This document shows positions 10,993 to 58,900 of a stretch of 64,000 bases of DNA, piece by piece (the stretch's first letter is position 1; every line of letters starts with the position of its first letter). Origin of the DNA: Datnioides undecimradiatus (taxonomy: Eukaryota > Chordata > Actinopteri > Lobotiformes > Datnioididae); assembly GCA_008933995.1 (NCBI GenBank), contig WARS01000015.1, positions 4,080,173-4,144,172 of the forward strand. The letters run 5' to 3'. Under the pieces are notes generated by a model. That model did not search any database and was not told where the DNA came from. It saw only the letters and a list, made by a program, of their open reading frames with translations. Both the position numbers and the translations under genes were made by a program.

Positions 10993-11423
10993 CTACTCAG
11001 TGAAGAGCAGTTGTCCTGAGAAGGTGCTGTCTCTGGTCAGACCATTGCGACTATCTTCGACCATTAGCCAGACCCTGTCTCCCTTCTCAAGCCTAAGAAA
11101 CACATTGCCACTGGTTGTGGTGTAACCATTCTGCGGTGTGGCGTGGGACTGCAGAATCTGCTTTCCATTGTGTATTAGCACTATATTGCTAGGGATCTGG
11201 TTGATGACACAGTGGTATTCAAACTGGTATACACCTGGATATTCACAGCGGAAATACCCTGTCTTGATGTCATAGCTGTTCTGTTCATTGTAGATGACAT
11301 CATGGAAGGTGATGGGCTTGTTAGCTTTTGGGAAGTTGTTTCCAAGTCTCATGGAGAATGCAACTTTTTTCTTGGTGCTAGGAGGTCCCGGGGGACCTCT
11401 CAGACCAGCTGGTCCTCTGGGCC
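10993..11423 (-). CDS. Terminal exon of copy 1: Gly-X-Y stalk plus C1q domain
   Basis: The exon opens after a clear acceptor (ttttctcacag) and reads in phase from the preceding exon into [16 protein letters not shown], then a complete C1q/TNF-like domain to a stop at 10993-10995. Domain landmarks in order are [60 protein letters not shown] and the terminal FSGQLLF. These are the conserved aromatic and glycine positions of C1q domains, which form trimers and bind varied ligands (complement C1q, collagens VIII/X, otolin, cerebellins). The domain is about 130 residues, the usual size. The whole exon is free of frameshifts, unlike the exons upstream of 12934. Confidence 0.93.
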
Positions 11424-14400
11424 CTGTGAGAAAATAATTAGTCTAATTTTAATAACGGCAATGTTTTAAAGAAATACTTTTACTATATTGCTTTCAGCAT
11501 CTTTGAGTGTCTTGAAAGGTGCTATACAAATTAAATGTATTATTACTTATTTTAGTAATTATGGTTAATAGTAGAGGAAGAGGTATTTACCTGGAGGTCC
11601 TACTTTTCCACTTGAGGCTTCTTCTAAAGAAAAGGGGGAGGGGGTGGAGTCAGCATTTTTAAAACACAATAACAGCACAGAGTGGCTTCAGTCAACTGTG
11701 CTAGAGAAGATTTAAGGTTATTAACTCACCATCCTCTTTCCATGGGCTGAGGTCAAATGCAGAAATGTCCTTACACTTGGTGTAACCAGATCCCCGAGGC
11801 CGGTACAGGAAGGGTTTTTCTGGGACTTCGGTGATGCCCGTGTTATCACAAATAATCCGGGCAAGTGATGTTTCCTTCAGGGAATTTCTCTGGGCCTCAG
11901 TGAAAACACCCTGGTTCTCCCACCAGAGTCTGAAATTGGACATTTTTGTTACGTTTAAAACAAAGTCATACAAAACAAATGCAGAGGTGCAGCTAACGCA
12001 AAAATCTCAACAGTTTTAGCAATGTGATTCATGTAACATACCGGTCACCCTGGCGGATCCTCTGGAACTGAGTGGCAATCAGGCAGGCAAACAGGGGTCC
12101 AACTCTTCCTCCTTGGACAAAGGGCTCAGCCACCCCACCTAGCCACACGTCAATGTTTTCAGGTGTGCCATAGAGAGCCAGCAGGTTCCTGGCCAGCTCA
12201 GTGTTGTTCATCACTTTAGCCAACTCTGCCAAATTTCTTGGTTGTGACAGCCCACAGAACCTTCGCCATTTGTTGTAGCCTAAAAAGAGGCACACAGTGT
12301 GAAGATGTTGCCAAGTATACGATAAGTGATGCCTGCAAAAGCCTTGTTATGTTTGCTAAATTCATTGTCAACATACAGAATATATAAAAGTAAACAATAA
12401 ACAATAAACAAATACCAGGAAGTCCATGGTCTCTGCTTCTTTGCATGTTGAGAGATGCCAGATCCAATGCCAACTCAGTGGAGAATTTAAACAGCCTTTC
12501 TCTCAGCTCATCAGGCATCATGTGGTCCTGCGTGTTCAGCTTGGCCTTGTGTCCCACCAGCCCCCTCAGGATTGGGTCCAAACCACCTGAAAAGCACAGG
12601 AGATAACTTAATTTTGACCAGATGTCCTCAAAATCAGTTTAGGAAAGGTATAACACATTAAAGGTTTTGGCCATACCTTCAAAGATGACTCTCCATGGTG
12701 CGAAGAAGGCTTTATGCAGTAGTGGGCTGGGGTAATCAGAGTGCTCCATGTAGTGCTCATTAAGACGAAAAATGAAAGGCTGAATCATCAGGTGAGCAAA
12801 TCGGTAAGCAGCTGTGGCGAACACATTGGAGATGCTGGGGTCACGTTTTCATAAATAACCAGGGTAGGTGAAGCTGCTTGCTTAGCGACGTCTGGTCCCA
12901 CAATGTGGAGTAAGTAGTCTCTGAACGTGATAACCTGAAAGACAGCAGAGAAACTTAGTGAACTGAACAATGCAAGGACACACAATCTAACCATTCAATC
13001 ATGAGCATATCATTTCCAGAAAATCCACTCCAGCAAAGGGCCTCTCTAACCTGAAAGTATCCTCCCGCGATCTTCGCGCCTCTGATGCAGCCTCTCCATC
13101 CCAGTGAGGATTGAGTTTGGCCAGAGCACGTGCCAGACGGTTATGTTCACGCATCAACAGTGTGTGTAAAGACGTCAGAGCAATGTTCTCATTTGATCGA
13201 TCATCACCTTCGAAGCCACGTGAATTGAAGAAAGATGCTGTTAGCTGTGGACCATGCTTGAAATGGATAAAGATTCTTTTAAGGAATGTATATCAGAGGT
13301 TTTGCTGCCACTCACCAGCCAGAAAGCAGGGGACCTCCTTGACATTACTATCATTGTCTGTGACTCGAGTGTAGCACACATGTTGGCACCCATGTTGGTG
13401 AAGGGCAGGAGTTCCACGGCCATTGTCAGTGTACTCTGTGTTGATATAACGATCCGTTATCTGAAGAGGTCGGAGGAAGCGGAAGGCTTTGGTGTCATCT
13501 GAGCGTACCTGGCCTGTCGATGAAAGATGTGGCCGAGTTACATCACTGGCGGACATTGCCTGCACCAAAGATGTAGCCTGTGTTGCCAGAACCATACGCT
13601 GCTGCTGAGCGGAAGAAGGGGATGCACTCCTCTGAGTTTGAGCCAAAGCGGGGGTCTTGCTTGGGGATCTGTTTAGATGACAAACACTCAGTATATGTGT
13701 GTATGTGTGGAGGCTTTTCTGTGTTTTCTTGTGCAATGCAATGACACTGACCTCAATGGGGAAGCAGGGCTCAGTGCGTTCACAGCTCTTGTCATAATCA
13801 ATCCCATTACTGAATAGGCGGATGACTGGAGAGTGAGGGTAAAGGTCAGTCGTGAATCCAGTCCACTGGCCGAAAATGGTTACCAGGTGAGTGTACAGTG
13901 GGTCACTCTCCACAGCAGAGTTTGCGGTGCGAAGAATGCGGTTTGACACTTCTCTTACCTGGGGACAGAGTAGGAGAATATACACAACCAGGCATCTTGT
14001 GTCTTTATTCCTTCATGGCGTCCTTGCAGCATAATAGTTAGTAAGAAGATTTTCGCAAGTTTATTACCAAAAGGGTAAAGATGTGACCATTGACTCTTTG
14101 TTGAGGTCCCAGCCTTTCAGTAGAGATTTCATCCTGGTACTCAGCAGGGAGCCAGCGGGTGAAAGGAGTGTTGGCGGATCCCCAGCGGGTGTTTTGCCTG
14201 GCCAAGTCTAAAAAATCCGCTGTTAGCCGCCGTTCATTATTCTGTTTTTTATGATTACTAACTTGGAACTTATTGAATGATTCTAAAAGTGCAACTAAAG
14301 GCCAAGCCAAAATAAAATCAAGGGATATCTGCAGGCAGTGCAAATTAAAAGATTTTTTTGAACACTCACTTCATTGCTGTTGTCCACACCTAGTTTCTTT

Positions 14401-15374
14401 ATTTTTTTGGAAATGAAAAGTTGCTATTCAGCAACTGACTCACCCTGTTGTTGCAGGCGGCCTTTTTCGCAGTCTTGAAAACTTGTTTAGATTAGGAGTT
14501 GTCTTGCAGAAAGGAAGCAGCGATTAGTCTGGAAAGGGCACAACCTGTCAGCTCAGCAATGACCTGCAGATCCTCCTCAGAAGATCCAGATCGATCAAAG
14601 AAAGAAGAAGACTGAGTAACTCAGCTGTGACCCATTTGGAAATATTTGAAGGGAGCCATGGAAAGGCTACACACCCGTGTATTGATGGGCGTTTTGACGT
14701 CTTTCCATAGACTTTTGATCAGTTGCACAGCATTGTCCATATAGTCAGCCGCTTTGCGCGCAGCAAGGCGCGTTGGACCAACAGGCTGCTTCAACTTAAC
14801 GCCAAGATGTCTGCAGGATTAAGCTGCATTCACTCCTCACTGGATTCAATGCTCTATATTTGTATGCAGGGGGTCCAGCTTTATCAATATCTTCAGGTTT
14901 ACATATATTTTACAAAGTTTATACAACAACTGGTTTATCCACTTACTCTCGCCTGGAGTATTCATACGCTGAGTCCACATTGGCTTTAGCACATCACTGC
15001 CCTTTCAATTGCTCTTGCTCAGGTGTGACTCTGAAAACTAACATATTGTTGAGTTTGCTTTCGGTTCACTCTTTTTCCGTGATTTGACACTTTTAAGATT
15101 CATTTATGCTACACAATTACAGTATTTTACAAAATATGTATTTTAACACAACCAAAACATATTGTTAGGTATAGTCTGAAACTAACTATAAAACTAAAAC
15201 AAGAGATTCTGTAGTATAATGGAAGTGCTTGAATTAACATCTATTTTCAGTGAATATAATGGAAGATGAATGAATTAACAACTATTCTCAGGAAGATGTT
15301 CAATGCAGTACTCACCAGCTTTCACTAGCATAGCACAGGTAGGCTGCAACCAGCAAACCCACAAACCAATTCAT
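10993..15374 (-). CDS. Copy 1: heme peroxidase (MPO/EPX type) fused to collagen stalk and C1q domain; 5' half carries indels
   Basis: Exons read on the minus strand: start exon 15316-15374 (signal-peptide-like [15 protein letters not shown]), about 14945-15032, 14675-14853, 14444-14590, 14068-14197, 13752-13958, 13316-13668, 13051-13207, 12677-12934, 12416-12586, 12042-12279, 11730-11929, 11591-11623 and 10993-11423. Family landmarks include [16 protein letters not shown], the proximal-histidine block [28 protein letters not shown] and [13 protein letters not shown]. The heme-ester Glu is in RSNEN, where MPO has RSSEM, so the MPO-specific Met (sulfonium link) is absent, as in EPX/LPO. Secreted or granule peroxidases use H2O2 to make hypohalous acids. 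Exons from 12586 downward are fully open. Exon 12677-12934 needs one extra base near 12841, and every exon upstream of it except possibly the start exon contains small insertions or deletions. Either this is a damaged gene or the sequence has consensus errors. C1q and stalk are described separately. Confidence 0.8.
11591..11623 (-). CDS. 33-bp linker exon joining peroxidase to collagen stalk (copy 1)
   Basis: This small exon encodes [11 protein letters not shown] plus the first base of the next Gly codon. It has an acceptor (ccctttctttag) and a donor (gtaaat). It is in phase with both the peroxidase exon (donor gtgagt at 11729-11728) and the C1q exon. It supplies the first Gly-X-Y triplets. 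With the next exon the stalk has seven uninterrupted triplets. Confidence 0.88.
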
Positions 15375-18800: not shown

Positions 18801-21800
18801 CTATTCCCCCCTCCATGGCCTGAGGTCAAATGCAGGGATGTCTTTACATTGAGTGTAACTGGACCTGCTCTGGTATTGGAAGGGCTGCTCTGGTAGTTCA
18901 GTGATGCCACTGTTGTATGTAGATGATCTTTGAGAAGCAAGTGATAAAATCTGTTTTAAGGGACTCCTCTGGGCCTCGGTGAAGACTCCTTTGTTCTCCA
19001 CAAAGCCTTGGAAATGGACAGTTTATTAATGTTTTAAATGCATTTTACAACCTTAATCCAACATTTTAAGTTAATGTCAATCAATTATGTATGTCTGCCT
19101 CCTGACTTCTTACGGTCTCCTAGCGGATCTTCTGGAGACGAGAGTGGCGATCAGAGCCAAGCAAGCGGTGGTCCAACTCTTCCTCCTGGACAAATGGCTC
19201 AGCCACTCCTCCCAACCACACATCGATGTTGTCAGGTGTGCCATAGAGATTCAGCAGCCTCTTGGCCAGATTATCATTTTTAAGCACTTTTGCCAACTGT
19301 TCCTGATTTTTAGGTTGTGACAGCCCGCAGAACTTGCGCCATTTGTTGTAACCTAAAAAGAGGGACACAGCGTGAAAATTATGCAGTGGTGTAAATAATG
19401 ACTGCAAGGCACTTAACAGAAAATAAAAACTAAAATTAAATCAGAGTAATACCAGGAAGCCCGTGGTCTCTGCCTCTCTGCATGTTGAGAGATGCCAGAT
19501 CCAGCAGCGACTCAGTGGAGAGGCCAGCCTTTCTCTCAGCTCATCAGGCATCATGTGATCCTGCATGTTCAGCTTAGCCCTGTGGCCTGGCCCCCCTTAG
19601 GATTAGGTCCCAAACCACCTGAAAGAAGAGCACAAGAGGCCAGAATTGCTTTAAACTTACAATATGTAACATTTCTGCATTAAAATGTCTAAAATAGATG
19701 ACATATGATGTTGAATAAGTTTAACCTAAATCTTAAGTTAAGATCTTAAGCAAGATCTTAGAGAAACAATGAACAAATGTCATTGACAATTAGGCTTGCA
19801 GCCACTACCAGTCATCCTGTGTCAGGCCAATTGGAGAAACACTGTTTTACTTCTTTAATCACTACTTTATTCTACTTTATTCAGGGTTTTTTAGCAGTTT
19901 TTTATCACTGGGTTTGTTTCTTTTGGAGATAATTCAGCTCCTAGATAACAACCCTTGGAAGGAATCCTTAGGAGGAGAGTGATGGCAGTGGTGGTAAAGG
20001 CAACAATACCCATGATGCCACACTGTTTGTCCGCAGACTGTGTGTTTTGTTGTTTTTGTGATTGGAAGACCCCCAGTGGCAGTATCCCCCAGTATCTTAT
20101 GGATATCAGATTTATTTCTTAACTTACCCCATTCTGTAATTCATTATAGTTTTAGCTGCTTTGTGTTGTTGTTTTTGGTATGATAGACCATTGAGTTTGA
20201 TACAAACAGTTCACTGTAAGTGAGTACTAATTAGCTTACTTGTATCATCCCAGGTTAAATACAAAAAGCCAGCCAGCACACTTAACTACACTGCAGCAGA
20301 CTATGTCCTACATCAGAATGATTAAATTAAGGCTTCCAGCCATCGGCTGTAGCACTGGAGACACTCTTCCCAGTGGGTGAGTAAAAACTCCATCTTTAAA
20401 TTAATATGGTATGTATTGACTTTAATGGAACCTGTACTAACATGAACACTAACATGGCAAAGGTTTGTACAAAGATGACTCTCCATGGTGTAGAAGAAGG
20501 CTTTATAAGCAGTGGGCTGGGGGTAATCAAGTGCTCCATGTAGTGCTCATTAAGACGAAAAATGAAAGGCTGAACCATCAGGTGAGAAAATCGGTAAGCA
20601 GCTGTGGCGAACACATTGAGAATGCTGGGGTCCACGTTTTTCATAAATAACCAGGGTGGGTGGAAAGCTGGCAACGCGGCGTCTGGTCCTATTAATAGCA
20701 GATAAAGTAGTCTCTGAACGTGATAACCTGAAAGACAGCAGAGAAACTTGTTCACGCATCAATGTCTATGTCTAATCTATGTTCACGCATCAACAGTGTG
20801 TGTAAAGACATCAGAGCAATGTTCTCATTTGATCGATCATCACCTTCGAAGCCCGTGAATTGAAGAAAAAGATGCTGTTAGTTGTGGACCATGCTTGAAA
20901 TGAATCAAACTCTTTTAAAGGAATGTATATCAGAGGTTTTTGCTGCCACTCACCAGCCAGAAAGCAGGGGACCTCCTTGACATTACTATCATTAGTATCT
21001 GAGCAAGTGTAGCACACATGTTGGCACCCATGTTGGTGAAGGGCAGGGTTCACGGCCATTGTCAATGTACTCTGTGGTGACCCTTAACAGTCCGTTATCT
21101 GAAGAGGTCCCGGAGGAAGCGAGCTTTGGTGTCATCTGAGCCGTACACCTGGCCTACATCGATGAAAGATGTGAGCGAGTTCATCTGCTGACGGACATTG
21201 CCTGCACCAAAGATGTAGCCTGTGTTGCCAGAACCACACGCTGCTGCTGAGCGGAAGAAGAGATGCACTCCTCTGAGTTTGAGCCATGGGGTCTTAGCAG
21301 GGATCTGTTTAGATGACAAACACTCAGTATATGTGTGTATGTGTGGAGGCTTTTCTGTGTTTTCTTGTGCAATGCAATGACACTGACCTCAATGGGGAAG
21401 CAGGGCTCGGTGCGTTCACAGCTCTTGTCATAATCAATCCCATTACTGAAAGGCGGATGACTGGAGGGTAAAAGTCAGGTAAGTGGTCCAGTCCACTGGC
21501 CGAAAATGGTTACCAGGTGAGTGTACAGTGGGTCACTCTCAACTTTCGAGTTTGGTGTGCGCAGTATATGTCCCTTACCTGTGGACAGGAGAGTTGAAAA
21601 TAAGACACATGATAGTTAAATAAAGAAAAAACCTTAAGCATCACTGCAGATATGGTTACATGTTCAATTTGTTACTGTTGTCTTAGTTTCCTTAACCTCT
21701 CTACTTTAAGTAGAATTCTACATAAATATGTATAAATATATCGTACCAAAGGAAGGATTTGTCTGTTGATTTTCTGCTTACGGTTCCAGCCTTTGGGCTT

Positions 21801-23090
21801 AGAGATTTTATCCTGGTATTCAGCAGGAAGCCAACGAGTCAAAGGTGTGTTGGCGGATCCCAGGCGAGTGTTTTTTCTAGGCAGAAAAAACAAAAAATGC
21901 TCTGCTTGTACATGGGTGCGCAGTGTAAGGCATATAACAAGGAATGGAATGGAACGGAAAAGGAATGTCTCCCTATTTAACATCTTGCTTGTGAAATGAA
22001 AGTGAGAAGGAGTCAGGGCGCTCCATTTTTGACAAGATTCAGTTTAGCTCCAGGGGCAAAACATTTAAGCCGTCAGTTAGCTGCAGACATCACTGCTTTT
22101 GTTGCTTGCCTGTTAGGATTACTTAGCACCTGACTCACCTGTTGTTGCAGACGCTGCTTGCAGTGCAAAACTTGTCTAAATTAGGAGTCGTCTTGCAAGA
22201 AGGGATACGATGTTGGGCAGAGCAGCCTGTCAGATCAGCAATGACCTGCAGATCTTCCTCGGAGATCAGATCTGATTTAAAAAGAGGCAAGGAATAGACG
22301 TCCTATGTGTTGCTTGAAGGTAATTGTTAGGAAAATTCAAAGAACCTATTTATGATACACACCCGTGGCATTGATGGCGCGTTTTTGACGTCTTTGAAAA
22401 GACTTTTTGATCAGTTGCACGGCATTATTCATATAATCAGCAGCACGCACAGCAACACGGGTTGGACCAACAGGCTGCTTCAACAACCGCAGGACGTCTG
22501 AAGGATTTGCTGAATTCCTCCTTACACGTTCAATACTCCTGTGTTGTGTGGACAGATCAGTTTCATTAGCACTCTAATGCCTCTGAAGGTATTCTGTAAC
22601 CTGGAGTTTTCATGTATTTTATACATTCATGTTGTGCCATTTGTTATTTACACTTACTCTCTTCTGGAGTACTCATATGCTGAATCCACAGAGGCCTTGG
22701 CTTCAATCACAGCTTTTTCAATGACACTTCTGCTCAAATGCAGTTCTGAAGGCAGAAAACTTCTTTTAGTTGCTTTGTAAACACAGTCCAGTCACATTTC
22801 AGTTTATTTTCTTAATTTTTTAAATTTATTATGGAAGCTGACTGTTTCCTGCAGTTGTACCATATCAACGCAATAAGTGCAGCAAAATGTTTACAGTAAG
22901 TACAAACTTGTATGTTTATCTGTCTTTATTGTATTCATCTAAATGCCTAAATAAATGGTAGTAGGCTAGACTGTTTTATATGTTTAACTTTCATTAATGT
23001 AAATGAATAAAGACTGTACTCACCAGCATCCACAAAGCTCAGCAAACACAGGTAAAGACCTGCAGCTATCAGGCACATAAAGTACTTCAT
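18801..23090 (-). pseudogene. Copy 2: MPO/EPX-type heme peroxidase, 3' half disrupted, no C1q tail
   Basis: Exons 1-5 are clean and phase-consistent: 23024-23090 (signal peptide MKYFMCLIAAGLYLCLLSFVDA), 22658-22745, 22363-22538, 22139-22271 and 21747-21876, 198 codons in all. They encode recognisable blocks such as [19 protein letters not shown] and [16 protein letters not shown]. From about 21577 downward the exons are damaged. The distal-histidine exon has indels. The exon with HTLLMREH (about 20757-20850) is cut short and replaced by a short repeat of GTTCACGCATCAA, losing some 32 residues. Exons near 20470-20720, 19455-19617, 19120-19352 and 18801-19012 have further frameshifts or deletions, and the ICDNTG motif is lost. 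The last exon ends with an ordinary stop (18801-18803) after AFDLRPWRGE. This is a likely pseudogene, unless the defects are assembly errors. Confidence 0.75.
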
Positions 23091-26867: not shown

Positions 26868-27654
26868 ACGTCTATTTGGAACAATTACAGGTGAAGTGTT
26901 CTAAACTTTAATTTTCAGAAAGATAAAGATGAACTAAAAAGATAAAGATTAACAAATACAACTCAAAACTTGAAACTGCCCCACTGTGGATGCAGATATG
27001 ATCCTTTCCCTCATGGCTGTCATCAGCCAAAAATCACCATTTGGAGATGGTGTACAAACAAACTTCAAAGAAATATGATAAAAAAAACACCATTTTACTA
27101 TCATCACTATAGGAGACTGAACTGTCTGAACTTCAAGAATTTAAAACTTTTCAGATTTTTCTTAATTTGTGTCTTGATTTTAAAATGTGTCAGCAACATT
27201 TACAACATGGCTTTGTTTATGTTCATTCTGAAAACTCAAAACTGCAAAATCATACACTGTTCAACCTTTGGATGGTCAGCTTTCTCTGTGAAAGCCATGA
27301 TGGAGTGGAGCATCTTGCAGAGCAACATTTAAGTTTAACTGAAAAATCTGCTGAAAGCTACTCAACTCTGTAACTACTAAATGTATTATATTTGTTTTGC
27401 TTGGTGTACAAATATCCTGGTTTATCTATTTAAAGTACTCACAGTGCTTACAACATCTGGTGGGTGATGTTATATTGTGTGTAATTTGTCCTATTTGTCT
27501 GTTTTTCATTTATGTTTAATATTATAAACAATTTGTTGTCAGCATTTTTTAAAAACAATTGTTTACAAATATTTATTTTATAAAAATTCAAGTAAACACT
27601 CATGCGTCACTACACTGTCTTGGTATCCAAAACTTCATGTCACTTACTGTGGGA

Positions 27655-28398
27655 ATTAGCAAGAGAGATCATATTTCTCCGGTCTTAGCCTCTCTTCATT
27701 GGCTCCCTGTAAAGTCCAGAATAGATTTTAAAGTACTTCTTCTTACCTACAAGGCCCTTAATGGCCAAGCTCCATTGTACCTCAATGAGATGCTAAGTCC
27801 CTATCAACCCAACAGATCACTTCGCTCCCAGAGTGCAGGTTTGCTTGTGGTTCCCAGAATCTCCAAAAGTAGAATGGGAGGCCGAGCCTTTAGCTATCAG
27901 GCTCCTCTCTTGTGGAACCAGCTGCCAGTCTGGGTCCGAGAGGCAGACACCCTCTCTACTTTTAAAGTAAGACTTAAAACCTTCTTGTTCGACAAAGCTT
28001 ACAGCTAGCTCTAGTTACCATCTGAACTACATCATCCATGCCATCCCCTAGTTATGCTGCTATAGGCCGAGGCTGCTGGGGGACATCCCATGACATCCCG
28101 TGTCCTCTGCTGCCTATTGCTGTCATTTGCTGTCATTATTCTATATTGTTCTCTTCCCCCCCCCCCCAACCGGTCAAGACAGATGGCCGTCCACCTAGAG
28201 CCAGGATCTGTCCAAGGTTTCTGCCTGTTAAAAGGAAGTTTTTCCTTGCCACTGTTGCCAAGTGCTTGCTCATGGTGGAACTGTTGGGTGTAACTAACAG
28301 TAATGAGTGTGGTCTAGACCTGCTCTGTTTGTAAAGTGCCCTGAGATGACTTTTTGTTGTGAATTGGCGCTATATAAATAAAATTGAATTGAATTGAA
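27655..28398 (+). mobile_element. 5'-truncated L2-like LINE, C-terminus of reverse-transcriptase ORF and 3' tail
   Basis: The frame ending at the stop 28006-28008 contains HISPVLASLHWLPVKSRIDF, LLLTYKALNGQAPLYL, FSYQAPLLWNQLPVWVRE and STFKVRLKTFLF. This is the signature C-terminal region of teleost L2/Maui-type LINE proteins. The 3' tail includes the poly-C stretch near 28157-28167 and the widely shared GTGAATTGGCGCTATATAAA block, and ends with (AATTG)n from 28379. Only the last part of the element is present. It is not a host gene. Confidence 0.85.
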
Positions 28399-34317: not shown

Positions 34318-37302
34318 ATGGCAGCATCTGGGTTCATCCTGGTGATCGTCGCGGTGTCTCTGTGGCCTGGTAAGATGAAGATTTTCTGCATCACTGTCAC
34401 CTGACAAGTCGCCATTACGTCTTATCAGATATTATTATTATTATTATCGTATGATCGATAATAATATACAATCAGTGCAAAGGACAGCTTGCCTCAATAT
34501 GCCGACCGACGTATAAACATTTATTAAATAAAATTAAATATTTGTTATTGTTCTACATGATAATTTTCCTCCTTGTCGTTTTTGTCTCCATTGTCTCCCA
34601 ATCACTGTGTGCATCATCTCTCGCTCTCTGTATGGGGCTTTTCAGGCGAAACAAGGTTCATCATAGACCCTCTGTCATTCATCAAACACAAATCTCTGGT
34701 GAGCCTAATCTTTATTTCCTATATCATTATCATCATTATAATTATCAGGTTTTGTCGAAAGGCTGGTATATGGAGATATAATATTCATTTTAACTATAAA
34801 ATTGCAAAGCACTGTTGCACTTAAACACACTAGTCTGTTGTTTTTGCCACCAAAATTGGCTAAAAGTATTTCCTTACATTAGCTGTCAAAAATGCACACA
34901 ATAAGCTTGATTGATACTGGTGTTTCTTGCTATGGTTTCTCCCCTTTAGAGTCTGGATATGTGTTCAGAATGCAGCCAGGCTGTCCAGCTGTCCGCCAAC
35001 ATGATTGCCAGCAGAGATACGAAGGTGAGGATATTTGTGGCTCCCTCACCGCACAGTTTCACTTTACTTTCACTTCTCTGTACTCTACAGACCACTCCTG
35101 GGTTTGGGGAAGTGGTTGTTAAGGAAGCTGACTGCCCCACCTAGCAGTTGGGATCGCTGTAACATTTTAAATAATTAAACATAATATGGACAGTTTTAAT
35201 AAGGCAGTTGCCCACTGTGAGCAAATTCAAACGCTATTTTACATGTGCTTACTTTCTATTTTGCAGATAAAACGTGTTTCCGTTTGTGTGGAAAACACAA
35301 TTCATCTGTCTTCAACACATGCGGTCACCCAGTATTCTTGCCATAACAGAGCCAGTACACTAACCACTGTACTTTTGCAGGAAACTGTGTATGAAACCTT
35401 GCATGCTCTGTGCCAGCGCCTCCCAAAAGAACAAGCATCAGAGTGTGAATCACAGGTGAAGACATATTTGCCAAAGGTCCTGCAACAGACACCTGGCCAC
35501 CTGGTGAGTTTAGCCTCTATATAGGCTTATTTATAACAATGTAAACTACAGTGTCATTAATGCAAATTGTGTATGTAGAAACCTGGAGACAGCTGTAGGG
35601 TTTTTGGACTCTGTGCTGCCCACAAGGAAGAGGAACTGCTTCAACTTCCACATCATTCCACCGATAAAGACATTTCCAGCTCTGCACTTGGGGCGGCCAC
35701 CAGCTCCCATGTGAGTGGGAGAGAGCAGAAGTGAAGATTCAAATAAAAGTTCAAATGAAACCTTTATTTTTATGCTATAATCAGCCAATTCTCTTTGTAG
35801 GAAGTGTTCAACCCAGCTTGCACCCTCTGTTTGTTCATCATCAAGAAACTAGAGACCATGTTGCCCACAAATATGACAGAGGTGACATTTTATATAAATT
35901 TGTGTACCTCTTTATTTTATCAGGCACCCTAACCATACATTATATCATCTTAACCCTCCTACCCTCTTTCTTTCTCTTCAGGAGGCTTTGATGAAGCTCA
36001 TGGACGAGATCTGCGACCTTGTACCACAGAGCTATAAGGAGCGATGCGATGATTTTGTTGCCAAATATGGCGTGCAGATAGTTGAATTCCTCTTATCATC
36101 TGCTGCACCTCACACAATATGTACTCTCTTGCACCTCTGTTTGTTCAAAGAGCAGACTGTTCCAGGTCAGTAACATTTTCATCATGAATACATACATCAT
36201 TTTGACCTGAACCTCACAATTCCACCGCCAAGTTAACACCCTGATGATTACGCAGAGGTGTTTATCCCCTCGGAGTGCGAGTCGTGCCGCACGCTGGCCG
36301 TGCTGAGCCGACTTCACCTTGGTCCCAACTCCACCGAAACCGAGACTTCCTCTTTCCTTCAGTCTGTCTGCGTCCTTCACCCCAATGCCATCCCCAAGGT
36401 CTGGGACTCAGCTAACACTAAACATCCCACAGTGCTCCCAACTAACAAAATCCCTCACAACTTACTGAAATGTTAAAATACGAAAGATGTAGGATGAAAA
36501 AATGATAATAACTCATACTCTTTTCAGTGTGGGGCTTTCACCAAAACCTTTGGGTCCCAACTGCAGAAGGTTTTGAAAAACCAGATGGACCGTCCACATG
36601 CTTGTGAAGTAAGAAAAGGCTTTTTTAAAAAACACTCACATTTCACAATCGCATTTGTACAAATTCAGTGGAGGGACTAAGTGAAAACTTATATCCATGA
36701 GAGGAATTATCTACAGTAAATGCTATAAATCAACAAGCAGGGGTTGTGATTAGCCACTAACTAGCGTGGGTTTTACCATCACTTTCAGCAGAACACATCT
36801 TCTGGTGACTAAAAAGATACAAACAAGGCATAATCAACACAGCACCCAGTGAAATAATCGTGACCACTGATACGTGTTGATTGTTTTCCTCTGTCGTACA
36901 GAGAGCTGATCTGTGTGCTGCCTCAGAGAAGGTCGAGCCACTGGGAAGTAATCGTTGTACTTGGGGACCAACCTACTGGTGCAAAGACCTTCACACTGCT
37001 CAGATGTGTGGCGTAAGTTGAACTCAGTCAATTCTAAAAAGTTTAGCCAGTTAAAAGAGGCACACAGGCAAGTCACACATATCAGAATACAGCATGCATG
37101 TTTTTCCAATCAAGCTGGATCTTGCCATTTGAAGTAATGGCCAAGCAAACTATCACATTCTGAGAAAGATGTGCTACAAAGACTGATCATTGACATGGTT
37201 TAAACTAATGTGATTTTATGATTTTAAATTAGTTTCACATTCTGTATCTGCTTTCATTTGCAGAACCAGGCCTTCTGTGCGAAATACATATGGAAGAAGT
37301 AA
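34318..37302 (+). CDS. sftpb: Saposin-domain protein, probable surfactant protein B orthologue
   Basis: Eleven exons join without a break: 34318-34369, 34646-34698, 34950-35024, 35381-35503, 35579-35710, 35801-35881, 35982-36165, 36256-36398, 36528-36608, 36902-37012 and 37264-37302, giving 357 residues. A signal peptide (MAASGFILVIVAVSLW) comes first. Three saposin-B domains each have the six-cysteine pattern: Cys 40/43/71/82/107/113, Cys 152/155/183/194/219/225 and Cys 241/244/272/282/307/313. A saposin-A-type motif (CTWGPTYWC) spans about 327-350 at the C-terminus. Possible N-glycosylation sites are Asn169 and Asn258. Such proteins are processed into small lipid-binding units that perturb membranes. 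The neighbours usp39, C2orf68 and mat2a match human 2p11.2, where SFTPB sits beside USP39, so orthology to SFTPB is inferred from position. A prosaposin-like identity is the alternative. Confidence 0.85.
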
Positions 37303-38003: not shown

Positions 38004-41000
38004 TCACACCCCTGTGTGGTTGTTTGTGTTAATGTCACTGTCTTGTCTCTTCCAGATCTAGAAGAGAGAAAAAAAAGTCGATATGTAAATCCAATCCTTA
38101 AAAGAGTTCAAAGGGTTATAGACCATTTTAGATTAAGAATGAAAACTGCAACCAGGTATGAATTAAGATTCATCTGATAGATTTTTCTGAAAGCTGCTGA
38201 GAATGTTTGAACACTTCAAACGATCTGTATCATTAACTTTGGCAATTTTCACCAAGAAATAAGGAGTTGGTTCCCCACAAAGTTTATATGGAGGGCATCG
38301 TCTCAGAAATCCCAATCCCCAAAATAAATTTTAAAAAGAAGTCACCACTCAAGCACCAGTTTAATTAAATTCTCTACAGCAGCTCCAGGGAGGCATGATC
38401 TTGTTCTTCATGCTACAGTAAGACAAGATGCATTTATATTACTCTTTTACAGGAAGAGCTTTGCAAAAAAATAAAAAATAAATGAAAAATCACTGCACAA
38501 AACTTAATGTGTATAAGGAATTCAAATATTTTTGGCTTATTTTACATGCTTTTACAGATATATGATTGGACAAGAATCTGAATGCTGTCAAGATTAATAC
38601 TGGTTGATTTTATTTATTTCATATCACTACCAAACATAAAAGGTTCAACACACCCAAAATAATCTTCACCGTAAGCAGAAGCTACAATTGTCTGTTTTAT
38701 TGTAGATCTGCATCTAAAAGTCGCATTTTATGTTCCACACAAAAAGTATTAAGCCAAGGCTGTGCAGCATTTATATTCTCCAGCATTGCTAAAAAGAGTG
38801 TGGGGACTTGCCTGGATGTAGGCCTCTGACAGTGTAATCATCTGAGGCAGAATGTCGATCACCTGCAGGTCCTGCATCTCATACCACTTTCCAGTTCCCT
38901 GATTAAACATGAAGAGAGATTGTGAGAGATGATGCCTGTGACATCAGCTTAACTTATAACCCAGTGTTGGCTTGGTCCAAACATGATTCACTGCACTTTT
39001 GAGGTTTTTGTAGAAACACCATCAGGCATTGGGAAAAAAAACAAACTGGCTGCAACCTACATGATGCAGAACATGTATTCTGTAGGCTCCCTCAGAGGGT
39101 TTCCCATCATGCACTACATTGGCGACAAGATCATAAGTTGTGCTCTTCTCCGTAGCTTGAGCTTCCTCTGTCAAGTACTCACGAAGGTCAACGTTCCTGT
39201 TGAAGCAAGGTGAAACATGATGAGCACACTCGTACTGAGGAACACATCCTTGTTATCACCTCTCACAAGAATTACATTAAGCAATAATAATAACCACCCT
39301 TCATTGCTGTCATCAACATGCAACTTCATGGTTCTGTCACTTTGATCCAGGCAACATATTCTGTCTGACGGTATATGAACAGCACTTACGTGATAGGGAA
39401 GTTCACAATTGTTGGGTTTTTCTCCACAAAGAAATTGTTCTTGGTGAATCTTTTGATGCAAAAGATGAGATACGGAGGCAGTTTTGTCAGCTGGAACCTT
39501 TTGAGAAAATTCTCTTTGTAGGTTTTGTATTCCTGAATGTAAATGAGACAGAAAAGTAAGCAGACGTTTTGAGTGGCCTGTTAAATTTGAGTATAGCATT
39601 TGCAAAATACTGTTGTGGTAACTGCTGTCATGGCCCTGTGTGACTGTGTCAAAAAGTATAAATCAAATCTTCATCAATGCCACAGCTTTTCTGTGAAGGT
39701 TAATGCCTTTAACGTTCCTTTTAGAGTAATTTTCCCCAAATGTCTTATTTTTTCATGTCATATCTAAGACAAGGAGACGTGAATGAATCATTACCTTCTC
39801 TGTGCTTCCATTGAACTTGGCCAGGATGTTGAAGAGAGGCACCTGTGGGATAATAAGCTGCTCCTTCTCATCCTTGTACAGTGGAGCTGTTGGGAGGTCA
39901 AGGGTCAGAAACAGGAAGGTGGACTCAGACATCTGCTCCTGGTACTCCTCTGTGACAAGCAATGCCTCTTTCTCCTCTGGTGGCTGTGGAAACAATGTTG
40001 ATTCTGTCAATAAAACATCTATTGACTGTTGGCAGAATTTAGGATTTTAGAGCATTGGATCAAAGGAGCCATAACTGATTTAATGAGCCATTCGCAGTTT
40101 CACTGTACTGGCCGTGTGTACTTAGACTCAGAACATCACAACTTCCTCAGTCTATCTATGCTTGAGACTATTCGTATTCGTTTTAATGTCACAAGTTCCA
40201 AATATCTAACATTGTCTTCAACTAAAGTAAATACTACAAGACGAGTGAAACAAATTACAAGTCACCTCAAAATTGAACTTTAATCGGGGAAAGTATTCAG
40301 TAACATGTAAGATAATCTGCCAAAATGAGCTTTGAATTTACCTTCATTTTGACACGAAAATTAACTGGTAAGGACTTTTTTAAATGTATCCCTATCTAAA
40401 GAACACAACTGGCTAGGTAAGTGAAACATTTATGAAAAAACTGAGTTGTTAGTAGAATTATTCATATTCTACATGTCAGTGATTTCACATCACAAGAAGG
40501 AAACTCACTAAATCAGGATGTGGAAGTTTCTTGGAGAAGATCCGCATGGAACCTTGAAAGGCTTTCGTGATGATTGCTGTGAGGGCACAAGGACAGGTCA
40601 ATGTAAATAAGGGTTAATCCACATTTTTCCAACAATCATAAATGAAAAGCATTCTCAAAATACAAATTGATTGACCCTTGATTTGGTGCATTTGAGTTTT
40701 TATTTATTCACTCTGAATTTGCTAAATACCCATCTTAATAGCATAGTAAAGACTTTATTTGTATAAGCTATGATTATATAGATTAATATAAAATATTATA
40801 ACTTTTAAGAATCAAACTCCTTTGATTCTACTCACATGTTTTTTTCTTTGTGCCACCAAGAGCACCGTGCAGGGCATTCAAGAACCACGTCATGAAGTCC
40901 ACAGCATCTCCTGCAGAGAAGAGAACAACTGATCAGCATCCTAAGCTACTGTAGTCTCTACAGGGCAGTGTGTCCTAAAAGCATGCTTATGATCTACAAT

Positions 41001-42732
41001 ATGCAGGTCAGAACAATACAGATACTGGCAACTAAATCATTACCTTGCTTGGTAATTTGGAAGTTCTTCTTGCTGCACAGCACCACAGCCTGCAGCATCT
41101 CATGGGGAGACACATGAGCTTTGAAGTTCCTTGGATTCCAAAGTTTGCGCATCAGCTCACCAAACCGCTGCACCAAAAGAAACATTATATCCCCTGGTGG
41201 TCTGCGAATCCCCCTGTAGTTTTCCTCCTCCAGGAAGTAGTTTCGCAAAGGCGGAACATTGGAAAAAGCCTAGAAAGAAGGCACATATGTCAAATGGTTG
41301 AATTCAGTTAAAAAGTTCATGACCACATCCAGATATGGCCAATTTAGACAGCAATACATACCTGTAACACCACATTGGCGTAGTCATTGGCTTTGATGTT
41401 GTTAAGCCCCACAATGCCTGGCAGGTAGGTTGTACCATCGTAGGCTCTGTACAATTTACCCTGCTTGTCCAGCCCTGCAATATGCTGCTTGGTGAATGTT
41501 GGCTTCAACACATACTGGAGAGGAAGAGAGAAAGTGTAAACAAATTATTATCATAATCCATCAAGTCCATTTTGCATTAATAATTTGCCCAGTATTTTTC
41601 AACAGCTTCATGTTATAATTGTGATGATTCAAGTATGACTCTTAGGGTTTTAAACAATATTTGACTTATGTTGGCAGTGTATGATGCAGACCCAGATGAT
41701 AATTACACTTGACCTGTCAGCTTTACCTACAACATCATCCAGTGTAAGTATTACGTTTGCCCTTTTAAAAATTATGATACTGAACATGAAAATAACCTAA
41801 ACACTCCTTATGAGAAGTATCATACTAACATGCCATGAGAATGTGACCCCTTTTTACTTACCGTAATGTCTTCTAGTGAAGAATCAATGATCTCATAGTT
41901 GTCGGGCAGACAGTAAAACTTGAGTGTGTGCAGATTCAGGAACACATGATGGGTAAACTGGACACTGTGTGTGTAAGCATGGGACTTCAGACCTCTACCT
42001 GAAAGCAAGAATACGTGAGTAAATCAGTCCAAGCGCAAATTTGGTCGATCCGTGATAAATTGTCAAATCATTCACCTACCTTGAAAGTATTTCCCACATA
42101 TAAGACAAGCATAGACATTAATGTGAGAGAGGGAGATGGAGCAGAGTTTCTCAAAGTCAAAGTCTAGCACACTCCTGGTGGGGAAACAGAATCATGGAAT
42201 CAGCTGCAGAGCTACATGACAAACTAGCATTTAGCACCAACATTAGCTATGCACGTTAAACTTCACTGTACCTGTTTATAGTGTCGAGGTAAGGGCAATG
42301 GCGGCTTCTCCGGTCTTCTACAACACGTCCTCTGACTATTTTGGCTGCAACTTCAACATGATGTGAAACAACATGAGAAACCTGGTTATCTTTATCTTGT
42401 TCAAACAGTTGAATGTAAGCTAGCTAAACGTACTGGCTAACCTAGCGCTTCGGTTGTTACAACACACTGGATTTGATACGCACAATAAAGTGGAAGGACA
42501 CTACACTTGTACATAGTTAAATACACATTAATAGTACTTACTAGCCCGCCCGTGTGTGATAGGACTGCCCCGTTACACAAAACCGAACGCATTTTGCCTG
42601 GCTCCTAGTAACGTTAGCTAACTTATCAGCTAACCAAACGTAGTGCATACGTTAAGGGTAAATAAACTTACCTCTCTCTTCGTTTTCATCATCGTCCACG
42701 TCAACCTCTCTTTCTCGTTTCAGAGAAACCAT
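38004..42732 (-). CDS. usp39: USP39, U4/U6.U5 tri-snRNP-associated protein 2 (inactive ubiquitin-specific protease fold)
   Basis: Thirteen exons join in phase to 500 residues: 42672-42732 (ATG), 42272-42350, 42080-42174, 41862-41998, 41362-41514, 41044-41269, 40836-40910, 40509-40576, 39795-39983, 39390-39532, 39061-39196, 38812-38898 and 38004-38057 (stop). An acidic start (REREVDVDDDENEER) is followed by a UBP-type zinc finger with HCPYLDT, CSISLSHINVYACLICGKYF and HAYTH. The rest is a USP fold. The catalytic cysteine position reads NDYANVVLQ, with Asp168 instead of Cys, and the catalytic-histidine box reads GAYRIHV. Both match the known loss of protease activity in USP39, which serves pre-mRNA splicing as a tri-snRNP component. 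Human USP39 is 565 residues, so the N-terminal tail is shorter here. The last intron starts with GC, not GT. Confidence 0.96.
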
Positions 42733-43203: not shown

Positions 43204-44559
43204 ATGGATATTTTAAGAGACGATGAGGTACATGAGCTGAAATACAAACCAGGGGGCCGTTTGGATATGAGCCACGGCTTCCTGCACCATATCCGGAGGA
43301 ACCAGATTGCTAGGTGATTTCCTACACTACGATTAGCTAATGCTAGTAGTTAGCGCGCTAGCTAACATTTAGCTAGTTCACAACATCCAGCCATACAACA
43401 GCATCAAAAGCTGCAACCACACCTTATTACCTTATTATTGAAGTTAATCTGATAGTGAAGGGATTTTATATAAGATATAAGGAGAGGCTGCACATGCATA
43501 TCGGCCAAAGCTACCCTTAGTTTATGTGAGTAACAACAACACATAGTGAAATTAGCTGCTTATTCCAAAGAAACAATATAAAGCTATGTGTCACTATTGT
43601 CATGGGTGAGTTAAATAAGCAAAATAAGTGCTGCCATTAAATGTAGGATGAGACGGTGTTGACTGGGTTGATGATTGTGTCAGACTTTGCCTCTGAAACT
43701 TATTATTCAAAAAAGATTTCCCTTCACTTCTTTTATTGAAGGCCAGAAAAGTTTGAATGAAAAAGCTTGTACACATATTTATTTGTTTGTGTTAGGGGAA
43801 CAGCAATACAACTTGATATTCATATGCAAATGACATTAATATAAGATCAAAATTACCATATTGCTATTGTTTAACAACTGGGTTAGAAGGTTAGAGATTT
43901 GCTACGCTGCATGTGTTTTTTAAAACACCTATGCTACATTGGGACATTTCTAACCAATAACAAAATGTTGATTTCTCATCTCTCCAAGAGATGACTATGA
44001 TAAGGAGGTGAAGCAAGCCAAAGAGCTTCAGAGACGGAGGCACACTACAACACCGAGACGACCCCGTCGACCTGATATCCAAGTGTACCATCCTCGACGG
44101 AGACGTGAGTTTGATGTTCTTTGTTGTTTTGGTCACATTACGTTCTCTGAAGCCAGTGACGAGAATATGCTTGTCTGCGTTCATTATCCAGATGGATCCG
44201 AGTCAGGGGCCGGTGCTGAGGCTGAAGAGTGGAATGAGAGTGGGTCAAGCACAGAGACAGAGACTCATGGAACTGAACTCTTCTGGCTTGACTATCAGGC
44301 CGACTCTGGAACCATTACTTCCTTCCTTGTGCACAAGGTTAATGCACTTCCCTTCCCACTACATTTCATGCTCTTTGATGTACCAATTTACTTTGCTTTG
44401 GTCGTGATTGACCACATGTTCTTTCTGTCTCTAAAGGAGGATAAGCCTGAAAAAGTGGTGGAACGTGTTGCAGAGAAGAACATCCTGGATTCGTCCATGA
44501 GAGCAGCACTACAGGCACGAATTCGAAAAGAAATGGACAAAAGACGAGACAAACGCTGA
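43204..44559 (+). CDS. c2orf68: UPF0561 protein, C2orf68 homologue
   Basis: Four exons join in phase: 43204-43313, 43989-44104, 44192-44337 and 44437-44559, giving 164 residues (human about 166). Recognisable blocks are GRLDMSHGFLHHIRRNQIAR, DDYDKEVKQAKELQRRRHT, PRRPRRPDIQVYHPRRRR, then an acidic Ser/Glu-rich stretch and LFWLDYQADSGTITSF. The C-terminus is a charged helix (MRAALQARIRKEMDKRRDKR). The basic tracts and acidic middle are family features. No biochemical function is established for the family, and none can be read here. Position beside usp39 matches the human arrangement and supports orthology. Confidence 0.92.
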
Positions 44560-54729: not shown

Positions 54730-54813
54730 TCAAGCAAAACACTGAAAAATGATCAAGTCAAAAAGGAATTCGAGATTCAATAACCAAGTGTTTAAAGCTG
54801 CCTTCTGAAACAC

Positions 54814-54835
54814 CGGCTTCTCTGTATCCACGCCG
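54814..54835 (-). promoter_or_regulatory. mat2a 3' UTR hairpin 4 (METTL16 site)
   Basis: TACAGAGAA (minus strand, 54818-54826) is enclosed by a short CGGC/GCCG stem. Confidence 0.85.
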
Positions 54836-54930
54836 AGTTTCAAAGAACAAATAAATAGTGTTGAGGTTTGATTTGTAGCCAATACGACTCTATGGCAAAG
54901 AACACAATCCAAAAGGATAAAGATGGGAAC

Positions 54931-55158: not shown

Positions 55159-55908
55159 AACAGCAACGGTCTGTAGAGGCATCTGAGGCTTTACGCTCCA
55201 TTCAGAGCTCAAATAATTAGGATTTGGCTCGCCCCTTAGCCTGCAATGCATAGCATTTTTTGTGAAAACAGCAACAACCCTTGAATTTAATTGTGCCATT
55301 CTAGCATCCTCCATGTAGACGAGGGAATAAAGCTAACAAAAAGGTAAAGAGCACAGGGAATAGTTGTACAAGACTGACAAGGGAGGAATGTTAAGAAAGA
55401 AGCTCAACTTGTTTGAGAAGATGCCAGGAGGCCAGAGGACCCTCCAACTCTCAAATTGTGTATCTAGATGGACTTTAGATGTTGCACAGACTCAGTAGAC
55501 ATCAGTAGCACCAGTAAATTAAGAGGGGTATCGCATATAGCCTAATATGCTACCGCCATGACATTGAATAAGACTGACGATAATAACGTCTGTGGAATGC
55601 CAAAAGGAAAACTGAAGGCTGCTATTCAGGGTCTATCACAACAAGAAGCGCAAGGGGACCTCAAGATGTGGGAGAACATGAAGTACTAGGAGGCATGAGT
55701 TCACTCATGGAGGCATGAGTTCATGGAACCCATCCAATTTAACATCAAGCTTCAGAGGCATGCCGCCCAAGACCCAGTACGATACTGAAACGAGCAGAAA
55801 ACAGTAACAAGACAAAAAGGAGGGATGTGGAGTGAGAGAGGGAGTTATGTGTTAAACGATACCATTATTATGAAAGAGACAAGCGCATTTCACCCCCTGG
55901 AACCTTGG

Positions 55909-55939
55909 AGGCTTCTCTGTAGTATACACCAACAAGCCT
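55909..55939 (-). promoter_or_regulatory. mat2a 3' UTR hairpin 1 (METTL16 site next to the stop codon)
   Basis: TACAGAGAA (minus strand, 55913-55921) is enclosed by AGGCTT/AAGCCT. It begins 21 bases after the stop codon, as hairpin 1 does in human MAT2A. In human, METTL16 stalls on this hairpin when SAM is low and promotes splicing of the last intron. That role is inferred here from conservation. Confidence 0.9.
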
Positions 55940-55960
55940 GGGGGGAAAAGCTTAACAGGT

Positions 55961-58900
55961 TTAGTATTTGAGCTTTTTGGGCACCTCCCAAGGGAAGGAG
56001 TCTCGGCCAAAGTGGCCATAGGCTGCAGTCCTCTGATACAAGGGCTTCTTCAGATCCAGCTCCCTGGAATACATAATCAACATATTTAGCAGCAGCCACT
56101 CCCAGTGAACTCTAATGCACACATTCATACTCACACAGGTATATCGATCACATTTGCCGGTGGGGAGTGAGCCAAAAAGAAAAGTTTAAAAATAAATAAA
56201 TAAAAAAAAAATAAAATTCAGGTTTGTTAGACCAGCTGGTAAAAAGGGGAACACGTGAAGCTTCAACACTTACCCTGCCAACCCTGAGCAGTGTGTTGAC
56301 TGCAGCTTGCAGATGGAAACCACACTCATCCAATTTAAAAAAAATAAATAAATAAATAAAAAAAAAAAGCTTATCTAACTGGAAGCTACAAGGCTTGGTT
56401 ATACCAGTATACCAGTTATGATACTTGTCTAGTCTGGTCAATAAGATTTTGCCCTTGCTAATGCCCACATGTGTAAACTTCAACTCTATGTCATGTAATC
56501 AAGTAGAAAGATGTGCCAAAGTCATAGCTTTGATTGCAGAAACCAAGCAAAATTGAGTAGCAGAAAAAAAATTGGTACTGGCTCTGAATGTCGCTATACA
56601 GTAATTGATTTAAAGAACTCTGAATCCTGGGCAGGGCAATTAAATGAAAAAGACAAAACTAAGACACGGGAGCTGTTGTTACATAAAGTAGCAGGTGGTT
56701 CCGAAGGTTATACTTTACCTGACAATGACTCCAGGACGGAGATCAAAGTTCCTCTTTACAATGTCAAGCAGCTCTCTCTCACTCTTGTGGGAGGTCCCAT
56801 AGTGGAAGATAGAAATGGAGAGGGGATGGGCAACGCCAATAGCATAGGACACCTAATACAACACATACAGACACACTTATTATATCAATCATAAAAACAC
56901 AGAAAGTTTCAGACACGAACCTCTTGCAGACCCATTCTCTTAAACAAACACGTGGGTTTTGACACCACCACTCACCTGGACCAACACTCTCCTGCAGAGC
57001 TCAGCCTTCACCAGAGACTTGGCCACCCAGCGTGCAGCATAAGCAGCAGAACGGTCCACCTTGGTGTAATCCTTCCCAGAGAAGGCGCCACCGCCGTGGG
57101 CACCCCAGCCGCCGTAGGTGTCAACAATGATTTTGCGCCCTGTCAGTCCAGCATCACCCTGTGACGGAAAAACCGGTTATACAATCAAGTAACTCTGGCA
57201 AGGCTGAATAGTTTCTCAAAGCCACACCTGTCGATATTTACCTGGGGGCCTCCAATAACAAATCGGCCACTGGGCTGCAGATGGTAGATGGTGTCATCAT
57301 CCAAATAGATGCAGGGAACAACAGCCTTGATGACTTTCTCCTTCAGTGCATCTCTCATCTCCTCCAGGCAAACATCTTCATCATGCTGAACAGAGATGAC
57401 AATTGTGTGCACACGCACTGGAAGCATGGCTCCACGGTCCTGACGGTACTGGACAGTAACCTGTGGAGGAAAAAAAAAAAAGATAAAAACATAAATAAGC
57501 TGAATCCTCCCCCAACAATACGAGAATTCATAGTAAAGAATTAATAACAAGTGTGACAACTCTACCTGTGTCTTTGAGTCAGGCCGCAGCCATGGAAGGG
57601 TGCCATTACGACGCAACTCAGCCATCTTGGCATTCAACTTGTGGGCAAGGACAATTGTGAGAGGCATGCACTCCTCAGTCTCATCAGTGGCATATCCAAA
57701 CATCAAGCCCTGCAGAGGAAGAGACATTTACTCACTCACTCTTTACAAGACTTCAAATCCTAATTAAGGAAAAAAATAAAAAGTAACTTCAAAATGACAG
57801 AACAACACGTTGACATTCACTACTGACCTGGTCGCCAGCACCAATGTCCTCCTCATTGCGGTCAATGTGAACACCCTGAGCAATGTCAGGAGACTGCTGC
57901 TCCAAGGCCACGAGAACATTGCAGGTCTTATAGTCGAAACCTGTGCAGAGAGGAGGCACCAGTTTAAGACAACATTCTTAAAAGCAAAGCCACAGACAGC
58001 ACACCAAAATGACAAGAAACACAGTATAACAACATGCCACACCTTTGCAGGAGTCATCGTAACCAATTTGGCGGATGGTGTCGCGGACAACTTTCTGGTA
58101 GTCCACTGTGGCACGTGATGTCACCTCACCGGCCAATAGGATCATCCCAGTCTTGGCAACAGTTTCTGCAGGAGATAAGAAAGACGCAACGTTCATTATT
58201 CCACTGTGCATACAAATATCTGACTAGACCCCACCTAAACATAGAGGATTCTGGGTTTTTTTCTTACCACATGCAACTTTGGCATCAGGATCCTGCTTGA
58301 GATGAGCGTCCAGAACTGCATCGCTGATCTGATCACAGATCTTGTCTGAAAAAAAAAAAAAAAAAAGGAAACTTAATACAGCAGCAACGATGAGACTGCA
58401 GCAAAAACAGATCACTGGGGCTGTATGTAAACTGTGGCATGCTAGCACCATCAGACAGGATCGTGCTCAGTGGGAGTGGCTCAGAGCGTCTTATTACAGT
58501 CGCCATTTCGGCATGTGCACATGTGGTTAGGAAGGGAGCGCGCGCGCCACTAACCAGAGACCGGAAGGCAAGCGTGATAAACTTTTAAACACTGAATTAA
58601 TTACATTTGCGGAGCATATAATATGACACAAATTCTCATGCTGATATGTTCAGACAAACAAATGCTATTAACGTCATCAACCACTGAGCCCCGCGTGGCT
58701 CGTAACAGCCCTGTACAATTCAGCACGTTTGGGAAAATGTTACACGAATTCACAAACGATCATACTGTGATGATAGGAGCATTCACATAATCGTGACAGT
58801 AGGTATCTGATACGAATTGTGTTACGTTTGCTGTCGAAGGACCAGACATGCATCACCTATTCAACACAGCTTAGCTAGCTAACATTAGCTACTATCGCGT

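What the first reader, a model, noticed from the sequence alone, without database searches (positions are those of the whole stretch)
10993..12586. Heme peroxidase spliced in frame to a collagen stalk and a C1q domain
Seen: the last peroxidase exon of copy 1 (11730-11929) does not end in a stop but in GAGGATG followed by a perfect gtgagt donor. The next two exons (11591-11623 and 10993-11423) have good splice sites and exactly matching phases. They encode [11 protein letters not shown], seven Gly-X-Y triplets in total, and a complete C1q domain with its normal stop. All five exons from 12586 to 10993 are open. Known: MPO/EPX/LPO proteins end about where this donor lies and have no C1q domain, while C1q domains trimerise and recognise pathogen or apoptotic surfaces. 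Inference: the product would be a trimeric, ligand-targeted oxidant-producing enzyme, an innate-immune effector joining recognition and killing. I do not know of a described protein with this order, but I could not search.
Basis: partly seen in the sequence, partly recalled or inferred. Interest (0 to 1): 0.92.

Follow-up and report, generated by a model that had tools for sequence, protein, structure and literature searches.

The report
Fish peroxidase with a C1q tail
This fish gene splices an oxidant-making enzyme of the white-blood-cell peroxidase type to a C1q recognition head; the design is real, recurs across ray-finned fishes and already sits in protein databases, but the copy in this assembly is frame-broken upstream of the join.

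Summary
Five minus-strand exons (12586 to 10993) join in phase into one open frame of 356 codons plus stop: a peroxidase tail, seven Gly-X-Y triplets and a full C1q domain. It is not unique: all 120 listed proteins of 1686 hits, and all 120 listed of 1375 in a second search, carry both Pfam domains; 134 different proteins, from bowfin, bony-tongues, eels, herrings, carps and cod to perch-like fishes, mostly named 'eosinophil peroxidase-like'. Three of them nearly fill 2.7-3.1 kb contigs, which fits only spliced messages. C1q-only and peroxidase-only trees both recover 6 of 7 tested sets. Ten paper searches gave no description of the fusion. The relatives keep the peroxidase active-site residues but none has the MPO-type methionine; 33 of 135 rows have lost most of the collagen stalk yet keep C1q. 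Against: exons 2-5 and 7-9 of this copy hold about 15 frame breaks and the distal-histidine motif in exon 6 is scrambled. I favour an assembly fault in a tandem array over real decay, without proof. Targeted oxidant delivery is plausible and untested.

The parts
15316..15374 (-). Copy 1 exon 1: start codon and leader-like peptide
   Evidence: ATG at 15374, GT donor
14068..15037 (-). Copy 1 exons 2-5 (15037-14947, 14853-14699, 14611-14444, 14197-14068): propeptide and start of the peroxidase, frame-broken
   Evidence: Frameshift-tolerant alignment to P0001: 1, 2, 2 and 3 frame breaks; identity 68, 62, 52 and 68% of aligned codons
13752..13958 (-). Copy 1 exon 6: frame open, but the distal-histidine motif (GQWTDHDL in P0001) is scrambled
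12677..13668 (-). Copy 1 exons 7-9 (13668-13316, 13207-13051, 12934-12677): frame-broken; hold RSNEN and the proximal His motif RFAH
   Evidence: 5, 1 and 1 frame breaks; identity 79, 88 and 82% of aligned codons
11730..12586 (-). Copy 1 exons 10-12 (12586-12416, 12279-12042, 11929-11730): last part of the peroxidase, intact
   Evidence: Open frame; Pfam; EPX/MPO match to their C-termini
11591..11623 (-). Copy 1 exon 13: linker and first collagen triplets, 33 bases, phase 1-1
10993..11423 (-). Copy 1 exon 14: rest of the collagen triplets, complete C1q domain, stop
18801..23090 (-). Copy 2: tandem peroxidase without C1q, frame-broken, stop at the point where copy 1 has its donor

Best explanation
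Copy 1 belongs to a ray-finned-fish family in which a secreted haem peroxidase of the EPX/MPO/LPO type is spliced in frame to a linker, often a short collagen stalk, and a C1q head. Shown: the architecture here and in 134 relatives, message-like contigs, conserved active-site columns, and joint descent of the two parts. Inferred: C1q heads gather three chains and hold the enzyme on a microbial, dying-cell or matrix surface, so that oxidants made from hydrogen peroxide act close by; because the residue that is Met in MPO is Asn in most relatives and in the window, bromide, thiocyanate or iodide is a likelier substrate than chloride. The frame breaks of this copy are more likely faults of assembly in a tandem array than true decay (about 0.65 to 0.35).
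For: One open frame across five exons; both Pfam domains; 120 of 120 listed proteins with both domains in each of two searches; P0024, P0087 and P0104 with 894, 868 and 859 residues on contigs of 2768, 3133 and 2674 bases, filled to 97, 83 and 96% by the frame; distal Gln/Asp/His, Arg and ester Glu present in 131-132 and proximal His in 133 of 134 relatives, the rest mostly gaps; C1q-only and peroxidase-only trees of 44 rows share 6 of 7 tested sets; C1q kept where the stalk is lost, 33 of 135 rows. For an assembly fault: MAT2A about 40 kb away intact over 9 exons and 395 codons; the copies share runs of full identity through introns cut by clusters of differences that spoil both frames; identity to Toxotes in broken exons 7-9 is 79-88%, against 85-90% in intact exons 10-12.
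Against: About 15 frame breaks in copy 1 and a scrambled distal-His motif. Exons 2-5 of copy 1 are broken too, although there the copies are only 74-78% alike and identity to Toxotes is 52-68%, which fits decay better. Copy 2, the neighbour, lacks C1q. C1q changes faster than the peroxidase tail (mean pairwise identity 55 against 73%) and only 121 of 135 rows match a C1q signature that I recalled. No ligand, trimer or activity was tested; most relatives are automatic gene models. Both lists were ranked by a fused query, so they favour fused proteins.
Confidence: 0.6

Rival explanations
1. Copy 1 in this species is a decaying gene: a once working fusion whose upstream two thirds are broken while the 3' end is not yet hit.
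For: About 15 frame breaks in copy 1 and 21 counted in copy 2; identity of only 52-68% in exons 2-5; the rest of the window reads well where tested, MAT2A.
Against: Splice sites of all 13 introns are GT-AG; exons 7-9 keep 79-88% identity in spite of 7 breaks, many indels with few substitutions; the aligner counted no stop codon in aligned codons of copy 1, though it may have turned some into insertions.
Confidence: 0.33
2. Two genes: a peroxidase and a stand-alone C1q gene that gene finders joined by mistake.
For: Most relatives are automatic predictions; copy 2 and flounder PoMPO (PMC9908613, section 3.1) are peroxidases without C1q.
Against: No start codon for a separate C1q protein with a leader; 106 bases between the parts; three intron-free contigs hold the joined frame; the join recurs in bowfin and in two old teleost clades.
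Confidence: 0.03
3. The C1q head serves assembly, granule sorting or half-life of the enzyme and does not recognise targets; it might be cut off on maturation, as MPO-type enzymes are processed.
For: The linker is variable, with lengths of 3 to 110 residues and no collagen in part of the rows; some C1q-family heads act as trimer makers (recalled).
Against: C1q evolves faster than the enzyme, which suits changing ligands, but this is weak.
Confidence: 0.35

Closest known systems
Fish 'eosinophil peroxidase-like' database proteins with An_peroxidase plus C1q (Toxotes P0001, Gadus P0089, Larimichthys P0004, Amia P0116)
   Same: Same order of parts; best match Toxotes, 76% over the 395-residue region searched; all 14 exons co-linear
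   Different: Those are full-length models; copy 1 here is frame-broken upstream
Human eosinophil peroxidase, myeloperoxidase and lactoperoxidase
   Same: Whole enzyme part; MPO matches residues 26-729 of P0001, E 7e-220; catalytic columns kept
   Different: The human chains end before the collagen and C1q part; the Met after the ester Glu in MPO is Asn, His or Gln in the relatives
Adiponectin and complement C1q heads
   Same: C1q domain; adiponectin is the best solved match
   Different: No enzyme on the same chain; their collagen stalks are longer (recalled)
Flounder PoMPO (PMC9908613)
   Same: Teleost peroxidase; its MPO neighbourhood in teleosts includes ggcx, which in human lies beside MAT2A (recalled)
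   Different: 770 residues, described with a peroxidase domain only; the same fish also has a fused 878-residue protein, P0032

Membership tests
Peroxidase-C1q fusion proteins of ray-finned fishes | An_peroxidase followed by C1q in one open frame | tested here: met
   for the five 3' exons
Peroxidase-C1q fusion proteins of ray-finned fishes | Descent with the fused proteins rather than separate fusion | tested here: met
   Window tail groups with filefish Nelusetta and one 'lgn' protein, SH-aLRT 97, inside the 46-row clade
Peroxidase-C1q fusion proteins of ray-finned fishes | Complete open frame of about 880 codons | tested here: not met
   About 15 frame breaks in exons 2-5 and 7-9 as assembled; assembly fault or decay undecided
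Animal haem peroxidases (EPX/MPO/LPO) | Distal Gln/Asp/His motif | tested here: not met
   Scrambled in exon 6 of copy 1; present in 131-132 of 134 relatives
Animal haem peroxidases (EPX/MPO/LPO) | Proximal His and the Arg and ester Glu columns | tested here: met
   RFAH and RSNEN read in exons 9 and 8 of copy 1
Animal haem peroxidases (EPX/MPO/LPO) | Haem binding and peroxidase activity | not testable with these tools
   Needs protein
Myeloperoxidase proper | Met after the ester Glu | tested here: not met
   Window Asn; relatives Asn 125, His 4, Gln 3, gap 2 of 134; the meaning of the Met is recalled
C1q/TNF superfamily | Complete C1q domain | tested here: met
   Profile positions 1-127 of 127; recalled signature found
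C1q/TNF superfamily | Trimer formation | not testable with these tools

The most novel reading that the evidence does not exclude
Ray-finned fishes carry a self-targeting granulocyte peroxidase: its C1q head binds microbial, dying-cell or matrix surfaces and makes a three-enzyme oxidant source with bromide or thiocyanate chemistry. The EPO gene used as a neutrophil marker in Atlantic cod may be this protein.
Probability: 0.35. Interest if true: 0.8.

Novelty: new member of a known kind. Interest (0 to 1): 0.55.

Why it matters
Peroxidases serve as neutrophil and eosinophil markers in fish and are read as plain MPO or EPX. If a main one carries a C1q head, its location, partners and chemistry may differ from the mammalian enzymes. 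It would be a natural case of recognition and killing on one chain, apparently older than the split of bowfin and teleosts, and testable in laboratory fish.

Tried and rejected
Rejected: a separate C1q gene. Rejected: a C1q part on copy 2. Rejected: frame breaks as a general fault of this assembly (MAT2A intact; this is one gene only). Led nowhere: the bowfin tail alone gave 3 hits, since its database model has an odd linker. Open: spread outside the fishes listed; I saw no gar, sturgeon, shark or tetrapod by name in the listed rows, but each list was cut at 120 and ranked by a fused query, so this shows no absence.

Literature: 10 of 10 searches. From most hits I saw the listing only. Passages opened: PMC13337447, PMC8066739, PMC7588623, PMC5938384, PMC4407539, PMC8467531, PMC9908613 and its section 3.1. 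Nothing in these describes the fusion. Most subscription papers are not in the library, so 'undescribed' holds for these searches alone.

Full report
Observation. The five exons form one open frame of 356 codons and a stop, with a peroxidase tail and a complete C1q domain. Phases match at both new joins and the 33-base exon is phase 1-1. The enzyme part ends where human EPX and MPO end. No start codon could give a separate C1q protein with a leader.

The whole gene. A frameshift-tolerant alignment to the 884-residue Toxotes protein P0001 finds 14 exons, 15374 to 10993, in order, with GT-AG edges at all 13 introns. Exons 1, 6 and 10-14 have no frame break; exons 2, 3, 4, 5, 7, 8 and 9 have 1, 2, 2, 3, 5, 1 and 1. 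The sum of 15 depends on the aligner's penalties, and 11 deleted and 10 inserted codons come on top. In exon 6 the frame is open but the distal-His motif is scrambled. Identity of aligned codons to Toxotes is 37% in exon 1, 52-68% in exons 2-5, 79-88% in 6-9, 85-90% in 10-12, 60% in 13 and 63% in 14.

Fault or decay. MAT2A, about 40 kb away, is intact over 9 exons and 395 codons; it is the one neighbour that I read in full. The peroxidase copies share runs of full identity through introns and exons, cut by short clusters of differences that spoil both frames (90% over 812 columns for 13937-13142 against 21567-20778). A consensus mixed from similar tandem copies would look like this. Several species seem to have two or three members on one contig (equal contig lengths: Channa, Clupea, Fundulus, Kryptolebias, Myxocyprinus), so tandem copies are common. 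Against: exons 2-5 of copy 1 are broken where the copies are only 74-78% alike. I put an assembly fault at about 0.65. The window's own genome could not be searched (and eleven earlier calls unanswered).

Copy 2 (23090 to 18801) ends PWRGE-stop where copy 1 has its donor; no C1q match above chance follows. It is frame-broken too: 21 breaks counted, unreliable towards its end, where the aligner ran through the last intron.

Relatives. Search one: 1686 hits, 120 listed, 120 of 120 with both domains. Search two with bowfin: 1375 hits among the 8000 candidates scored, 120 listed, 120 of 120 with both. Together 134 proteins, from bowfin, bony-tongues (Arapaima, Scleropages), eels, herrings, milkfish, carps, pike, cod, flatfishes and perch-like fishes. 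Ranking by a fused query favours fused proteins, so the number of unfused fish peroxidases is not known; flounder PoMPO is described with a peroxidase domain only (PMC9908613, section 3.1).

Transcripts. P0024, P0087 and P0104 (source tag 'lgn', not spelled out by the tool) have 894, 868 and 859 residues on contigs of 2768, 3133 and 2674 bases, filled to 97, 83 and 96%. The window gene has 13 introns in 4382 bases. I infer that these contigs are spliced messages.

Descent. A quick tree of 71 rows chosen from 135 puts the window with filefish Nelusetta and P0024 (support 97) in a clade of 46 rows (support 97), next to a clade of 17 rows (support 90); some fishes have members in both. C1q-only and peroxidase-only trees of 44 rows, without the window, both recover 6 of 7 tested sets; the seventh, the 17-row clade, fails in C1q and has support 10 in the peroxidase. 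The simplest reading is one fusion before bowfin and teleosts parted, then joint descent; loss of the peroxidase stop with capture of a downstream C1q gene through phase-1 introns is my inference.

Mechanism. The distal Gln, Asp and His, the Arg and the ester Glu are present in 131-132 and the proximal His in 133 of 134 relatives; the exceptions are gaps and one Asn. The column that is Met in MPO is Asn 125, His 4, Gln 3, gap 2; the window reads RSNEN. That this Met favours chloride oxidation, and its numbering, are recalled. At least 3 Gly-X-Y triplets in a row occur in the linker of 102 of 135 rows, at most 2 in 33, some of which are short or odd gene models. C1q stays where the stalk is lost, which points to C1q as the selected part. 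It changes faster than the peroxidase tail (55 against 73% mean identity, 3000 random pairs). Its best solved match is adiponectin. Trimer and ligand are inferred from such families; no model could be made.

Expression leads, none shown to be the fusion. Cod neutrophils were named by EPO expression, a gene said to resemble both MPO and EPO (PMC7588623, passages); the cod protein of that name, P0089, 891 residues, is a fusion. Salmon 'eosinophil peroxidase-like' A0A1S3MI56 has 34 peptide matches and 50.5% coverage in a gill and serum study (PMC8066739, passages). A trout gene so named has fold change 108.4 at 21 days in infected resistant fish (PMC8467531, passages).

Verdict. A real and widespread architecture, apparently old, present in databases and not described in the papers found. 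The window adds one more member, damaged as assembled, beside a tandem copy without C1q.

Noticed in passing
55961-59198 (-), with 55885-55951 and 54804-54844: Intact MAT2A gene (9 exons, 395 codons) with two of its 3'UTR stem loops, Rfam MAT2A_A and MAT2A_D.
   Followed up: yes
35898-36173 (+), 40994-41269 (-), 43972-44559 (+): A saposin-B region, a weak match to ubiquitin hydrolase (below Pfam's cut-off; I read it as USP39 from memory) and a UPF0561 protein (C2orf68 type). With MAT2A this recalls the human chromosome 2 neighbourhood MAT2A-USP39-SFTPB.
   Followed up: partly
13142-13937 and 20778-21567: Two tandem peroxidase copies with stretches of full identity through introns, cut by clusters of frame-breaking differences in both.
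   Followed up: partly
19640-20450: About 0.8 kb between exons 9 and 10 of copy 2, where copy 1 has a short intron; not identified.
   Followed up: no
27553-28008 (+): Open frame of 151 codons that looks to me like the end of a fish retrotransposon protein; no Pfam match.
   Followed up: no
P0065: A Muraenolepis fusion model of 1132 residues with two further Pfam domains (PF14484, PF05729) in front; possibly a joined gene model.
   Followed up: no
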